Assembly (NCBI RefSeq): GCF_000972845.2
Contig: NC_040016.1
Span: 10,622,701-10,686,700 of the forward strand
Direction of reading: 5' to 3'
Source: Larimichthys crocea
Taxonomy: Eukaryota; Chordata; Actinopteri; Sciaenidae
Length of the DNA: 64,000 nt
Positions 50,301-57,331 of this stretch are shown here, one piece after another. A program made the translations under genes and the position numbers. The notes beneath the pieces were generated by a model. The model searched no databases and had not been told where the DNA came from. It worked only from the letters and a program-made list of their open reading frames with translations. The number at the start of each line of letters is the position of its first letter. Within the stretch, counting starts at the first letter, position 1.

Positions 50301-52182
50301 GGAATGCAATGGACAACAGTTTTGCACCAATACAAACTGATTAATCAACATCAATAGTAATTTACTTTGTTTTTTTCTCCCTTTCTTCTTTTTTGTAACA
50401 GCTCCCCAAGTTATGGGACATGGTATGTACACCTCTGCACCAGTCTGACATGACAGATAGACTACTCATTATTCAGTAATGTAATGTATACAGTATTCTG
50501 TATAGCCTACAGCATATACATACGTATATGTACGTTTTGTATTTATATGGATGTATTTCTAAATCTAATTTCAGATGTTGGTGTGTAACTGGACATAATC
50601 TCTTAGCATTTTATTTATCATGCTTGGGGAAATTCAATATAAGCATTTATATATGAAATGTAATTAATTAATTAATTACTTCACAGTTTGCAATTAAATA
50701 ATTAAGAACACACAGTATTTAACATTTTTAACATTCATTTAATGTAATTTTTTATTAACATCAACAGTATTTTAACTGTGTCCTGTGTTTTCCTCCCATG
50801 TCTTTTTCTATTTCGCAGGAGGTGGCTACAGACTTTTTGCAGGCAGTATGTACACCTCTCCACCGTTCTGACATGACAGATACACTATTCATTCATTAAT
50901 CATATAATGGCTATAGCCTATACATATATGTATGTTTATATGTATATGAATATGTTGATCAGTCTAATTTCAGATGACTTTCAGATCATTTTTTCACGCT
51001 TTATATATCGTGTTTGGGGAAATTCAACATAAGCATTTATGTATGAAATGTAATTAATAAATTAACAGTAATTGACTTATAATTTGTTTTTAAGAGCAAA
51101 TGATTATTTAACATTTAGAGTAAACGTAAGCTGTGCAATGGAACAATAGTAAAGCACTGATTTTTGAGAGTAATGACGGTCCTGGATAAGAAAACATGGA
51201 CAGTATTTTAACTGTGTTCTATATTTTTCTCCCATATCTTTTTCTTTTTCGGAGTAGGTGGCCAACCAGGTGTGTACAGCTCTACACCGTTTTGACATGA
51301 CAGATACACTATTCATTAATTAATCATATAATGTGTATAGCCTATACATATATGTATGTTTATATGTATATGAATATGTTGATAAATCTAATTTCAGATC
51401 ATTTTCAGATAATTTTTTCATGCTTTATATATATCATGCTTGGGTACAGTAATTGACTTATAATTTGTTTTTAAGAGCAAATGATTATTTAACATTCAGA
51501 GAAAACATTAATTGTGTTACAAAACAATGGTAGCACATTGTTATATAGAAAGTAATGATGGTTCTGGATATGAAAACACTGACATAACATACAATTTTAA
51601 CTATTATTTTAACTGTGTCCTATATTTTTCTCATTATCTTTTTCTTTTTAACAGGTTTGCCAGGTATGCCATACACTATATACAACTCTGCACTGTTCTG
51701 TTCTGGCATGACAGATATACCATCAATGTATTCATTTATAATTTGTTTGCAGGTCCCCCAGGTCCCCCAGTTATGGGATATGGTATGTACACCTCTGCAC
51801 CAGTCTGACATGACAGATACACTACTCATTAATCAGTAATGTAATGTATATAGCCTACAGCATATACATACGTATATGTATGTTTTGTATTTATATGTAT
51901 ATGGATGTATTTCTAAATCTAATTTCAGATGTTGGTGTATAACTAGACATAATTTCTTAGCATTTTATTTATCGTGCTTGGGGAAATTCAACATAAACAT
52001 TTATGTATGAAATGTAATTAATTAATTAATTCACAGTTTGCAATTAAATAATTACACATTAGTATTTAACATTCATTTAATGTAATTTTTATCACCATCA
52101 ACAGTATTTTAACTGTGTCCTGTGTTTTCCTCCCATGTCTTTTTCTATTTAGCAGGAGGTAGCTACGGAATTCCGGGAGGCG
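44333..52182 (+). CDS. Inter-alpha-trypsin inhibitor heavy chain (ITIH3/ITIH4-like), 3' part outside window
   Basis: Secreted plasma/matrix protein. Thirteen ordinary exons: 44333-44404, 45132-45292, 45424-45528, 46819-46981, 47100-47213, 47549-47677, 47845-47961, 48138-48306, 48394-48504, 48701-48882, 48965-49144, 49232-49353, 49801-49985, giving 1810 nt in frame. In order: signal peptide (LFGLLLALVIALP), VIT domain with KVTFELTYEELLKRRLGKYE, vWA domain with MIDAS DQSGS and LLTDGDPTTG, then WAYLTVKQLLEKE and YSFVTPLTSMVVTKP. Six in-frame microexons follow: 50402-50422, 50819-50845, 51258-51269, 51655-51663, 51753-51782, 52156-52182, coding a Gly/Pro-rich linker. The vWA sequence and Pro-rich linker are nearest ITIH4; teleost nomenclature often uses itih3. 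C-terminal ITIH exons are not found before 64000. Intron 3 carries a dispersed repeat. Confidence 0.88.
45785..46260 (+). repeat. Dispersed fish repeat in ITIH intron 3
   Basis: Starts near TTTCCATGACGTCACCAATG and contains GGTGGAGCTGAGGCAGGC, CTTAATTATGTACT, GTTGTCATGAACAACGG and TTAATATGGGTCCTTAAGG. I recognise this block order as a common non-coding repeat in teleosts (TGACGTCACCCATTGG family). The transposon class is uncertain. Confidence 0.65.
46261..46800. other. ITIH intron 3, right part
   Basis: Unique-looking intronic sequence with a 93-codon chance frame. No gene or repeat is recognised. Confidence 0.5.
50402..52182 (+). other. ITIH microexon cassettes a-f (Gly/Pro-coding half of array)
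   Basis: Six microexons, each entering and leaving in phase 1: a 50402-50422 (21 nt, APQVMGH), b 50819-50845 (27 nt, GGGYRLFAG), c 51258-51269 (12 nt, SGQP), d 51655-51663 (9 nt, GLP), e 51753-51782 (30 nt, GPPGPPVMGY), f 52156-52182 (27 nt, GGSYGIPGG). Donors are GTATGT, GTGTGT or GTATGC followed by a shared module ACACCTCTGCACCAGTCTG and ATGACAGATACAC. Acceptors have long pyrimidine tracts from a few recurring types: A (TTTTGTAACAG), B (TTCTATTTCGCAG), C (TTCGGAGTAG) and D (TTTTTAACAG). Order is A-B-C-D-A-B. Each can be included or skipped without a frameshift. Confidence 0.8.
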
Positions 52183-52189
52183 GTATGTA

Positions 52190-54022: not shown

Positions 54023-57000
54023 TTACCAGACATAGAGACACTGGTATGTACACCTCTGCACCAGTCTGACATGACAGATACACTACTCAATAATTAGTAA
54101 TGTAATGTATATAGCCTACAGCTTATACATACGTATATGTATGCTTTGTACTTATCTTTTTCTTTTTTAACAGGACGTCTAAGACAAGGTATGCCATACA
54201 CTATATATACCTCTGCACTGTTCAATTGTGACATGATAGATATACCATAAATGTATTCATTTATAATTTGTTTTCAATTCACAGTTTGCAATTAAATAAT
54301 TAGGAACACATTAGTATTTAACATTCAGTGTAAACATGAATTGTGTTATGAAACAATAGTAGCAAACTGATTAAATAAAATGAAGAAGTGATCTTGTTCA
54401 TATCAGAAAACCTTGTATCTGAATTTCATATCATCCTCTTTGTAAGCAAGTAGTCGTTTTATATGCTCATGATCGTGGCTTCTCTAACAGTATGACATAA
54501 GGCAGATATTCAATATCAGCATTTTGACAAAACACCAGAGCTTTTAGAGGTTAATTCTTCTGGGCATTTCTAATGATCACTAGCTAGGTATAACAAATGT
54601 TTGTTTGTTTTTTATAGAAAATGTGCAGATAAGATACTAAATATTTAATTTCTGAATTTGAGACTTCAGTTTCATGGCAGGTCAAGAACCTTCAAGTAAA
54701 CTTCTTTTTTCTATATTTCTTATTTCTTATTTCTGATATATATTTTTAATTTTGTAATTATGGTATGAACCAACCATCTTCATACCTCCACCAAGGCTGG
54801 ACAATCCTAAATCTGTCCTTCTAATTGCAGAAAAATTAATAGAAATTTACAGCATCTGCATCATAACACACAAAGTGAAAGACAATCAGTTAGAGGTTGC
54901 AGTCTATGTCTATCTAATATATATATATTATATATGGAGTATTTTTCTAATCTAATATATAACTGGACTCATTCTTAGCATTTTATTTATGTGCTTGGGG
55001 AATTCAACCTAAACATTTTGTATGAATGTATTAATTAATTAATCATTAATTAATTCACAGAGTATGGACGGTCCTGGATATGAAAACACTGACAGACAAA
55101 ACGTTTTGCACCAATGCAAACTAATGAATCAACATGAACAGTATTTTAACTGTGTCCTATATTTTTCTCCCATATCTTTTTCTTTTTCGGAGTAGGTGGC
55201 CAACCAGGTGTGTACACCTCTACATCGTTCTGACATGACAGATACACTATTCATTAATTAATCATATAATGTGTATAGCCTATACATATGTATGTTTATA
55301 TTGTATGAATATGCTGATAAATTCTAATTTCAGTGATTTTCAGATAATTTTTTCATGCTTTATATATCGTGCTTGGGGAAATTCAACATAAGCATTTGTG
55401 TATGACATGTAATTAACAATAACTGACTTATAATTTGTTTTTAAGAGCAAATGATTATTTAACATTCAGAGTAAACATTAATTGTGTTACAAAACAATGG
55501 TAGCAAACTGATTGATGATTAATGACGGTCCTGGATACGAAAACACTGACATGACATACAGTTTTGCAGCAATACAAATTAATGAATCAACATGAGCAGT
55601 ATTTAACTGTGGTCCTATATTTTTCTCATTATCTTTTTCTTTTTAACAGTTACTAAAGGTATGTCCTACACTATATAAACTCTGCACTGTTCTGTTCTGC
55701 ATGACAGATATACCATCAATGTATTCATTTATAATTTGTTTGCAATTAATCATCAAGACACATTAGTATTTAACATTCATTTAACATTTATCTGACTTGA
55801 AATACACTATTGCAAAGTGTACATAATTAATAATGGAATGTAATGGACAACAGTTTTGCACCAATACAAACTGATTAATCAACATCAATAGTAATTTATT
55901 GTGTTTTTTTCTCCCTTTCTTCTTTTTTTGTAACAGTTACCAGAGTTATACAAGCTGGTATGTACATCTCTGCACCAGTCTGATATGACAGATACACCAC
56001 TCTTAATTAGTAATGTAATGTATTAGCCTACAGCATCATACATACATATGTATGTTTTTATATTTTATGTATATGGATGTATTTCTAAATCTAATTTCAG
56101 ATGTTGGTGTATAACTGGACGTCATTTCTTAGCATTTATTATTCGTGCTTGGGGAAATTCAACATAAACATTTATGTATGAAATGTAATTAATTAATTAA
56201 TTCTCAGTTTGCAATTAATAATTAAGAACACATAGTATTTAACATTCATTTATGTATTTTATCAAACATCAACAGTATTTGTACTGTTCTGACTTGACAG
56301 ACACTCTTAATTATATATACTGTATATAGCCTACAGCATTACATACGTGCGCCTAAATAATTAGAACAAGGGATTATTTAACATTCAGTGTAAACATGAG
56401 CTGTACAATGGAACAATAGTAGTGCACTGATTTTTGAGGTAATGACGGTCTGGATACGAAAACCTGACATGACAAACAGTTTTGCACCAATACAAACTGA
56501 TGAATCAACATGAACAGTATTTTAACTGTGTCCTATATTTTTCTCCCATATCTTTTTTCTTTTAGAAAGCAAACCAGTGTGTACACCTCTACCTCGTTCT
56601 GACATAAAAGATACCACTATTCATTAATTAATCCTATAATGGCTATGCCTATACAATATGTTGTTTATATGTATATGAATATGCTGATAAATCTCATTTC
56701 AGATGATTTTCAGATCATTTTTTCATGCTTTATTATCGTGCTTGGGGAAATTCAACATAAGCATTTATGTATGAAATGTAATTAATTAATTAACAATAAC
56801 TGACTTATAATTTGTTTTTAAGAGCAAATGATTATTTAACATTCAGAGTAAACATTAATTGTGTTATGAAATAATAGTAGCAAACTGATTGATGATTAAT
56901 GACGGTCCTGGATACGAAAACACTGACATGACATACAGTTTTGCAGCAATACAAATTAATGAATTAACATGAGCAGTATTTTAACTGTGTCCTATATTTT

Positions 57001-57331
57001 TCTCCTTATCTTTTTCTTTTTAACAGTTACTAAAGGTTACCTACACTATATACAACTCTGCACTGTTCTGTTCTGACATGACAGATATACCATCAATGTA
57101 TTCATTTCTAATTTGTTTGCAATTTAATAATCAAGAACGCATTAGTATTTAACATTCATTTAACATTTATCTGACTTGAAATACACTATTGCAAAGTGTA
57201 CATAATTAATAATGGAATGCAATGGACAACAGTTTTGCACCAATACACTGATTATCAACATCAATAGTAATTTATTGTGTTTTTTCTCCCTTTCTTCTTT
57301 TTTGTAACAGTTACCAGATTTATACAAGCTG
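54023..57331 (+). other. ITIH microexon cassettes g-n (divergent half of array)
   Basis: Further cassettes with the same intron modules: g 54023-54043 (A, 21 nt), h 54174-54188 (D, 15 nt), i 55196-55207 (C, 12 nt, identical to c), j 55650-55658 (D, 9 nt), k 55937-55957 (A, 21 nt), l about 56566-56576 (C, degenerate, out of phase), m 57027-57035 (D, 9 nt, weak donor GTTACC), n 57311-57331 (A, 21 nt). Homologous positions recur at about 1370-1377 bp (i to l, j to m, k to n), so the unit is a four-cassette block. The coded peptides (VTRHRDT, GRLRQ, GGQP, VTK, VTRVIQA) are mostly not Gly/Pro-rich; some may be dying exons. Confidence 0.7.
54200..55050. other. Longer non-cassette stretch inside the array
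   Basis: Between cassettes h and i the repeat structure is interrupted by about 600 bp (roughly 54380-54950) that has no copy elsewhere in the array. No exon or transposon is recognised. It could be original intron sequence that predates the amplification. Confidence 0.45.

What the first reader, a model, noticed from the sequence alone, without database searches (positions are those of the whole stretch)
50402..57331. Amplified array of phase-matched microexons in an ITIH gene linker
After the 13th ordinary exon of an ITIH3/4-like gene, at least 13 microexons of 9-30 nt follow one another. Each has its own branch/pyrimidine module and near-identical donor-side intron. Four cassette types (A-B-C-D) form a block that recurs at about 1.37 kb (51753 vs 50402, 56566 vs 55196, 57027 vs 55650, 57311 vs 55937). 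Nearly all are phase 1-1, so any subset can be spliced in without frameshift. The first six encode Gly/Pro-rich pieces (APQVMGH, GGGYRLFAG, SGQP, GLP, GPPGPPVMGY, GGSYGIPGG). This could let a plasma protein vary the length and protease sensitivity of its linker by splicing or copy number. ITIH4 in mammals has a Pro-rich, kallikrein-sensitive linker at this place. I do not recall such a microexon array being described.
Basis: partly seen in the sequence, partly recalled or inferred. Interest (0 to 1): 0.92.

Follow-up and report, generated by a model that had tools for sequence, protein, structure and literature searches.

The report
Microexon-built hypervariable linker in fish ITIH
In the large yellow croaker, a blood-protein gene of the ITIH family strings together about fifteen tiny exons, ten of which are joined in the annotated protein, and several of them differ far more between copies than the introns beside them; this likely lets the fish vary a flexible stretch of the protein that would serve as bait for proteases.

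Summary
The array is real and the gene is complete. The species is taken to be Larimichthys crocea; the gene runs 6.4 kb past the window to a stop codon. I find 15 candidate microexons (14 in the window); 14 of 15 are divisible by three and phase 1-1. Splicing ten of them between exon 13 and the distal exons reproduces the public L. crocea 'ITIH3 isoform X2' letter for letter (917 of 917). In related fishes, 97 of 106 same-gene pairs of annotated proteins differ in the linker, against 4 of 14 among DPHF-bearing ITIH proteins. Across 50 species the linker averages 15% identity, flanking parts 70-90%; the predicted fold leaves it unstructured. Some exons diverge faster than their introns: against an unplaced near-identical contig, 10 of 78 exon bases differ but 7 of 1219 intron bases. 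Best reading: an alternatively spliced, diversifying protease-bait linker on an ITIH4-like protein. Splicing rests on annotation (no reads seen); selection and bait function are inferred. Against: two microexons look broken, young copies show no exon excess, most of the contig difference could be one event, and a DPHF paralogue also has five short symmetric linker exons.

The parts
44333..44404 (+). exon 1, start codon and signal-peptide-like segment
   Evidence: matches P0001
45132..45292 (+). exon 2 (VIT domain)
45424..45528 (+). exon 3 (VIT domain)
46819..46981 (+). exon 4
47100..47213 (+). exon 5
47549..47677 (+). exon 6
47845..47961 (+). exon 7 (VWA domain)
48138..48306 (+). exon 8 (VWA domain)
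48394..48504 (+). exon 9 (VWA domain)
48701..48882 (+). exon 10 (VWA domain)
48965..49144 (+). exon 11
49232..49353 (+). exon 12
49801..49985 (+). exon 13, constant anchor before the linker, ends in phase 1
50402..50422 (+). microexon m1 (type A), APQVMGH
   Evidence: in P0001
50819..50845 (+). microexon m2 (type B), GGGYRLFAG; 8 of 27 bases differ in contig C6146 (GGGYGFFLP)
   Evidence: in P0001
51258..51269 (+). microexon m3 (type C), SGQP or GGQP; not in P0001
51655..51663 (+). microexon m4 (type D), GLP (SLP after m2)
   Evidence: in P0001
51753..51782 (+). microexon m5 (type A), GPPGPPVMGY; 2 of 30 bases differ in contig C6146 (GPPDPPDMGY)
   Evidence: in P0001
52156..52182 (+). microexon m6 (type B), GGSYGIPGG; P0001 uses the acceptor 3 nt upstream (AGGSYGIPGG)
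54023..54043 (+). microexon m7 (type A), VTRHRDT
   Evidence: in P0001
54174..54188 (+). microexon m8 (type D), GRLRQ
   Evidence: in P0001
55196..55207 (+). microexon m9 (type C), GGQP
   Evidence: in P0001
55650..55658 (+). microexon m10 (type D), VTK
   Evidence: in P0001
55937..55957 (+). microexon m11 (type A), VTRVIQA
   Evidence: in P0001
56566..56576 (+). candidate m12 (type C), 11 nt, would break the frame; probably not used
   Evidence: not in P0001
57027..57035 (+). candidate m13 (type D), VTK, donor GTTACC; probably weak or unused
   Evidence: not in P0001
57311..57331 (+). candidate m14 (type A), VTRFIQA, intact splice sites
   Evidence: not in P0001
57332..64000 (+). rest of the intron inside the window (with a satellite); the gene continues as candidate m15 (VSQ), two ordinary linker exons and five C-terminal exons at C6:10,688,873-10,693,102, i.e. 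window-equivalent 66173-70402

Best explanation
This is a complete ITIH gene whose linker is encoded by a tandemly amplified array of phase 1-1 microexons; the array is likely spliced in changing subsets, and the linker it encodes is predicted to be disordered and to act as a diversifying protease-bait region. Shown by sequence or tool: array, frame, completeness, identity of a ten-microexon splice with the public L. crocea protein, linker-confined differences between annotated isoforms in relatives, exon-over-intron divergence in some comparisons, and a predicted unstructured linker between two predicted folded parts. Inferred: that each junction is used in liver RNA in this species, that relatives' linker forms also come from microexons, that selection drives the exon change, and that cleavage of the linker traps the protease as reported for human ITIH4. 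Rough split: array plus alternative splicing 0.9; diversifying selection 0.6; bait function 0.4.
For: Reading frame of 933 codons with all 14 in-frame microexon candidates and no internal stop. Ten-microexon splice equals P0001 in 917 of 917 residues. Same-gene pairs by my rules: 76 of 77 pairs differ in the linker, the 76 lying in 10 percomorph species; by a wider rule 97 of 106 pairs without DPHF, 85 of them with no gap and at most 5 substitutions elsewhere, against 4 of 14 and 3 of 14 for DPHF-bearing proteins. Mean pairwise identity over 50 species: signal and VIT 0.90, VWA 0.85, linker 0.15, C-terminal part 0.70. Exon against flank within 110 nt: m1-m7 12/21 v 9/207, m4-m10 6/9 v 14/187. 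C6146: exon 10/78 v intron 7/1219, Fisher p 4.8e-9. Two pieces of the array, searched in the genome, matched only this locus and C6146 (18 of 18 and 20 of 20 matches; the search skips common words). AlphaFold2: residues 581-707 below pLDDT 50 and without secondary structure, model mean 79.7. Human ITIH4 has a protease-susceptible region (residues 633-713, MASP-1 site 645-646) in exons 15-16, skipped in one brain isoform (PMC12455821, passages), and inhibits MASPs after cleavage (PMC10855846, passages). itih3 is one of three genes reported alternatively spliced across all heatwave stages in liver RNA-seq of Acanthochromis polyacanthus (PMC8933327, passages). 115 of 116 percomorph linkers hold at least one K or R.
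Against: No RNA read was seen; the isoforms are database models, and clustering at 90% hides members. DNA of the other species was not seen, so their linker forms are not shown to come from microexons. m12 and m13 look broken; m3, m14 and m15 are not in P0001. Several copies show no exon excess (m3-m9 0/12, m10-m13 0/9, m11-m14 1/21), m2-m6 cannot be judged (8/27 exon, 32/90 downstream), and the type D pair m4-m15 is not extreme (13 of 171 windows reach it). Eight of the ten exon differences to C6146 sit within 16 nt of m2 and may be one event; counted so, 3 exon events of 10 give p 0.019. C6146 may be a second haplotype or another copy. The 3' half of the array has many one-base indels against its sister copies, so its sequence is less sure. 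A DPHF paralogue in the same genome has five linker exons of 30-45 nt, all divisible by three and all in its annotated protein, so the array is an extreme of a family habit. The K/R count is weak, since most disordered linkers would have some.
Confidence: 0.55

Rival explanations
1. Neutral by-product: a tandem duplication made extra microexons in a disordered linker that tolerates anything; their variable inclusion is splicing noise without a function.
For: m12 and m13 look broken; identical copies exist; the linker is unstructured in the model.
Against: Relaxed constraint lets exons change as fast as introns, not several-fold faster; frame and splice sites are kept in 13 of 15 candidates, my reading; linker-confined isoform differences recur in percomorphs, and 15 of the 18 same-gene pairs from the carp-like fishes differ in the linker.
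Confidence: 0.2
2. The exon differences come from local sequence exchange between array units (gene conversion) or another clustered mutation, not from selection on point changes.
For: Eight m2 differences lie within 16 nt, and 5 of 7 intron differences and both gaps lie in the 170 nt upstream of m2.
Against: The changed 16 nt of the C6146 form of m2 occur nowhere else in the array or in the other loci held, so no donor was seen; within 110 nt the m1-m7 introns are about 95% alike on both sides of the changed exon.
Confidence: 0.2
3. The linker is varied for length, flexibility or binding (for example collagen-like GPPGPP or glycan sites), not as protease bait.
For: P 11.6% and G 10.2% in the variable linker part against 2.4% and 6.4% in the first 560 residues; linkers of 38-219 residues as modelled (116 of 120 proteins).
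Against: Human ITIH4 has its protease-susceptible region in the linker that follows the same domains (PMC12455821).
Confidence: 0.25
4. Assembly or annotation artefact.
For: One-base indels in the 3' half of the array and an unplaced contig with the same units.
Against: The stretch with m2 to m5 is seen twice with intact splice sites; the frame is open through the gene; the same kind of isoforms is annotated in other species.
Confidence: 0.05

Closest known systems
[quoted passage not shown]
   Same: Linker that follows the VIT/VWA part; in human the protease-susceptible region lies in exons 15-16, which one brain isoform skips (PMC12455821, passages). The fish gene lacks DPHF; that human ITIH4 also lacks it is recalled.
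   Different: The fish linker is an array of about 15 microexons of 9-30 nt; inhibition not tested in fish.
Micro-exon genes (MEGs) of Schistosoma mansoni
   Same: Secreted proteins from serial short exons, mostly multiples of three, with alternative splicing (PMC10526429, passages).
   Different: There the gene as a whole is 10-20 very short exons; here only the linker of a conserved vertebrate gene.
Alternatively spliced bait regions of invertebrate TEP/A2M (Biomphalaria TEP2, 12 exons; Drosophila TEP2; Chlamys TEP)
   Same: Alternative exons encode an exposed, cleavage-prone, highly variable segment of a secreted protein (PMC7016707, passages).
   Different: In Biomphalaria TEP2 and Chlamys the exons are mutually exclusive, and it is another protein family; here microexons are joined in series in a vertebrate.
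Alternative exons of insect serpin-1 (Pteromalus puparum)
   Same: Alternative exons of a protease inhibitor with raised dN/dS (PMC10513286, passages).
   Different: Longer segments of 44-50 residues in another protein family.
Titin PEVK exons (recalled, no call)
   Same: Phase-matched duplicated exons tune a flexible segment.
   Different: Longer exons, muscle spring, no bait idea.

Membership tests
ITIH heavy chain family | VIT and VWA domains | tested here: met
   VIT 108.5 bits and VWA 79.3 bits in P0001
ITIH heavy chain family | C-terminal ITI_HC_C domain | tested here: inconclusive
   No Pfam ITI_HC_C match in P0001 at E 0.001 and none listed at the locus; BLASTP aligns residues 715-917 with the HC_C part of P0267 at 21%, E 4e-5
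Chondroitin-linked ITIH (H1-H3 type) | DPHF motif at the start of the C-terminal part (role recalled) | tested here: not met
   No DPHF in the window gene; present at 8 places in the other ITIH loci examined: 5 in the C6 cluster, 2 on C20, 1 on C15. VIT matches on C7, C18 and C6909 were not examined
ITIH4-type | No DPHF, and a linker predicted to be exposed at the same place | tested here: met
   (prediction)
ITIH4-type | Linker cleaved by a protease, cleaved protein traps it | not testable with these tools
   Needs protein work
Micro-exon gene (MEG) | Most of the coding sequence made of microexons | tested here: not met
   The 14 in-frame candidates are 243 nt of the 2802-nt model
Micro-exon gene (MEG) | Serial short exons, mostly multiples of three | tested here: met
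   14 of 15 candidates
Alternatively spliced bait region | Subsets of exons differ between mRNAs | tested here: inconclusive
   Supported by annotated isoforms; no reads seen

The most novel reading that the evidence does not exclude
Teleosts run a combinatorial, germline-diversified repertoire of protease baits: one plasma ITIH4-like gene whose linker cassette array is amplified, shuffled by splicing and hypermutable or positively selected exon by exon, so that each fish and each lineage presents different bait sequences to host and microbial proteases.
Probability: 0.3. Interest if true: 0.92.

Novelty: new variant of a known kind. Interest (0 to 1): 0.78.

Why it matters
If right, it would be a vertebrate plasma protein that diversifies a protease-facing segment by microexon amplification and splicing, comparable to what is described for invertebrate serpins and TEPs, and it would make the question of how ITIH4-like inhibitors meet many proteases directly testable in a farmed fish. 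It also offers exons that change faster than their own introns, a clean place to measure diversifying selection on splicing units.

Tried and rejected
Considered and rejected: truncated pseudogene (the Pfam search, listed no C-terminal domain near the window, but reading on showed intact C-terminal exons and a stop); mobile element or satellite (two array pieces matched only this locus and C6146); chance splice sites; reader-only artefact (P0001). The first AlphaFold model was poor (mean pLDDT 52) and not used; the second, with a more varied alignment of 71 proteins, was (pTM 0.60). The exon-against-flank test with gapped exons gave p 0.003-0.04 for 7 of 10 type A pairs, below 0.05 for 2 of 3 type C pairs (both with m12), for 1 of 10 type D pairs and for none of 1 type B pair, weaker than the ungapped test. 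With 300-nt upstream flanks m1-m7 still exceeds all 305 windows, but 10 of 307 windows reach m1-m11 and 69 of 347 reach m7-m11. The first species table for isoform pairs left cyprinids out through an anchor pattern; one search included them, took 278 of 355 proteins (the rest too long or without anchors) and checked no species labels: at least two DPHF pairs join two species (Champsocephalus, Thunnus).

Literature: searches. In the rows listed by those on ITIH with microexons, splicing or fish (20, 27, 34, 36, 71; 10-20 rows each of longer lists, titles and starts of abstracts seen) no paper describes this array; the library holds open-licence papers only. Passages, not whole texts, were read of PMC8933327, PMC10855846, PMC6953315, PMC8110904, PMC10526429, PMC12455821, PMC7016707 and PMC10513286; PMC6953315 (electric fish, expression only) did not bear on the question, and PMC8110904 only reports itih3 as a top liver transcript in salmon. 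Pihl 2021 was not held and is known here through papers citing it.
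Full report
WHAT IS THERE. The window is G000:C6:10,622,701-10,686,700. [quoted passage not shown] The gene starts at 44333 and has 13 ordinary exons up to 49985. Then come 14 candidate microexons in the window, of four types by flanking sequence (A 21 or 30 nt, B 27, C 12 with one of 11, D 9 or 15), and a 15th beyond the window. 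The gene continues past the window with two ordinary linker exons and five C-terminal exons to a stop codon at window-equivalent 70402. Of the 15 candidates 14 are multiples of three and sit in phase 1. The 933-codon frame with these 14 has no internal stop. A scan for such candidates gives 15 hits where sequence of the same composition gives 0.20 on average; the scan pattern was set after seeing the array, and the copies are related, so this says only that chance splice sites do not explain it.

IS IT SPLICED. Joining exons 1-13, microexons m1, m2, m4, m5, m6 (acceptor 3 nt upstream), m7, m8, m9, m10, m11 and the seven distal exons gives P0001 letter for letter, 917 of 917. So that database model uses ten of the fifteen candidates and leaves out m3, the two that look broken (m12, m13), m14 and m15. 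The name 'isoform X2' and 13 member sequences in its cluster point to further forms, which I could not see. I saw no RNA reads; that NCBI models with exons of 9-15 nt rest on RNA alignments is recalled knowledge. In related fishes annotated forms differ in the same place: 76 of 77 same-gene pairs, the 76 in 10 percomorph species. With a wider rule on 278 of the 355 proteins held, 97 of 106 pairs without the DPHF motif differ in the linker, and 85 differ elsewhere by at most five substitutions and no gap; among proteins with DPHF it is 4 of 14 and 3 of 14, and 10 of 14 have gaps elsewhere. Of the 18 pairs that come from the carp-like fishes, 15 differ in the linker. Clustering at 90% hides close forms and can favour visibly different ones, and I did not see the DNA of those species. 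An RNA-seq study of liver in Acanthochromis polyacanthus names itih3 among three genes alternatively spliced across all stages of a heatwave (PMC8933327, passages); the passages do not say which exons.

HOW IT CHANGES. In 50 proteins, one per species, out of the 120 listed, mean pairwise identity is 0.90 in the signal and VIT part, 0.85 in VWA, 0.86 in the 15-residue anchor, 0.15 in the linker (columns at least 20% filled) and 0.70 after it; orthology of each was not tested. Within the array, some copies of one type keep the introns within 110 nt about 90-95% alike (gaps left out) while the exon is replaced: m1-m7 12 of 21 exon bases against 9 of 207 flanking bases, none of 167 flank windows as divergent; m4-m10 6 of 9 against 14 of 187, none of 171. 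This fails for young copies (m3-m9, m10-m13, m11-m14), cannot be judged for m2-m6, and weakens for some pairs with longer upstream flanks or with gapped exons. The clearest case is an unplaced 1299-base contig, C6146, 98.5% identical to 50558-51854. It differs at 10 of 78 exon bases and 7 of 1219 intron bases (Fisher p 4.8e-9) plus two one-base intron gaps, with the splice sites of m2 to m5 kept; m2 reads GGGYGFFLP instead of GGGYRLFAG and m5 GPPDPPDMGY instead of GPPGPPVMGY, while m3 and m4 are identical. Eight of the ten lie within 16 nt and could be one event; counted so, p is 0.019. The changed 16 nt were found nowhere else in the array or the loci held. Whether the contig is a second haplotype or another copy is open.

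WHAT IT ENCODES. A predicted structure (mean pLDDT 79.7, pTM 0.60) has two mostly confident parts, residues 24-580 (with a dip at 517-522) and 708-917, and no structure at 581-707. Of that stretch, 581-603 come from the end of exon 13, 604-668 from the microexons and 669-708 from the two linker exons. The first part matches solved ITIH1 (6fpy, 570 columns, 43% identity), and by sequence residues 10-595 match solved ITIH4 (9c4f). Linkers are rich in Pro and Gly, 38-219 residues long as modelled, and 115 of 116 contain K or R (116 of 120 proteins had both anchors). The gene lacks the DPHF motif found at eight places in the other ITIH loci that I examined. [quoted passage not shown] From this I infer that the fish linker is a bait region and that the array diversifies it. 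That step is not tested.

LIMITS AND CONTRAST. Ordinary DPHF paralogues also have short linker exons: one gene of the C6:4.37-4.46 Mb cluster has five, of 30, 30, 36, 30 and 45 nt, all divisible by three and all in the annotated L. crocea protein P0267, three of them looking like copies of one another. DPHF linkers of relatives are Ser-rich, median 53 residues in 105 of 118 proteins, against 100.5 in 116 of 120 for the DPHF-less set. So the habit is wider than this array. What stands out here is the number, the smallness, the use of a subset in annotation and the exon-over-intron change. Closest known designs are alternatively spliced bait-like regions in snail, shrimp, fly and scallop TEP/A2M proteins (PMC7016707, passages), insect serpin-1 (PMC10513286, passages) and schistosome micro-exon genes (PMC10526429, passages). 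The rows listed by searches hold no paper on such an array in ITIH; subscription journals are mostly not held.

Noticed in passing
window 11804-11931 +: A full-length U6atac minor-spliceosome snRNA match (134.7 bits).
   Followed up: no
window 1896-2918 +, 14482-14916 -, 26212-26574 +: Neighbouring genes: a Bicaudal-D-like gene, a ninjurin gene and a protein kinase gene (WNK-like by my reading) upstream of the ITIH gene.
   Followed up: partly
L029 8500-10000 and L030: Downstream neighbours look like an interleukin-17-receptor-type gene and a CRELD-type EGF gene (my reading, not tested).
   Followed up: no
window 54900-57600: Many single-base deletions against sister copies of the array, by eye, as in an unpolished long-read assembly; exact sequence of the distal units is less sure.
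   Followed up: no
window 57847-58872: Satellite of a 14-base unit TAGCATTAGCATGT, about 78 copies, in the intron after m14.
   Followed up: no
C6:4,370,000-4,470,000 (L032-L041): A tandem cluster of ITIH genes with DPHF; linker stretches near 13.8 and 24.1 kb of the cluster look nearly identical by eye, and one gene has five short symmetric linker exons, all in P0267.
   Followed up: partly
P0138, P0238, P0241, P0243, P0247: DPHF-bearing ITIH of notothenioids and a prickleback carry SSRG-type repeats in the linker.
   Followed up: no
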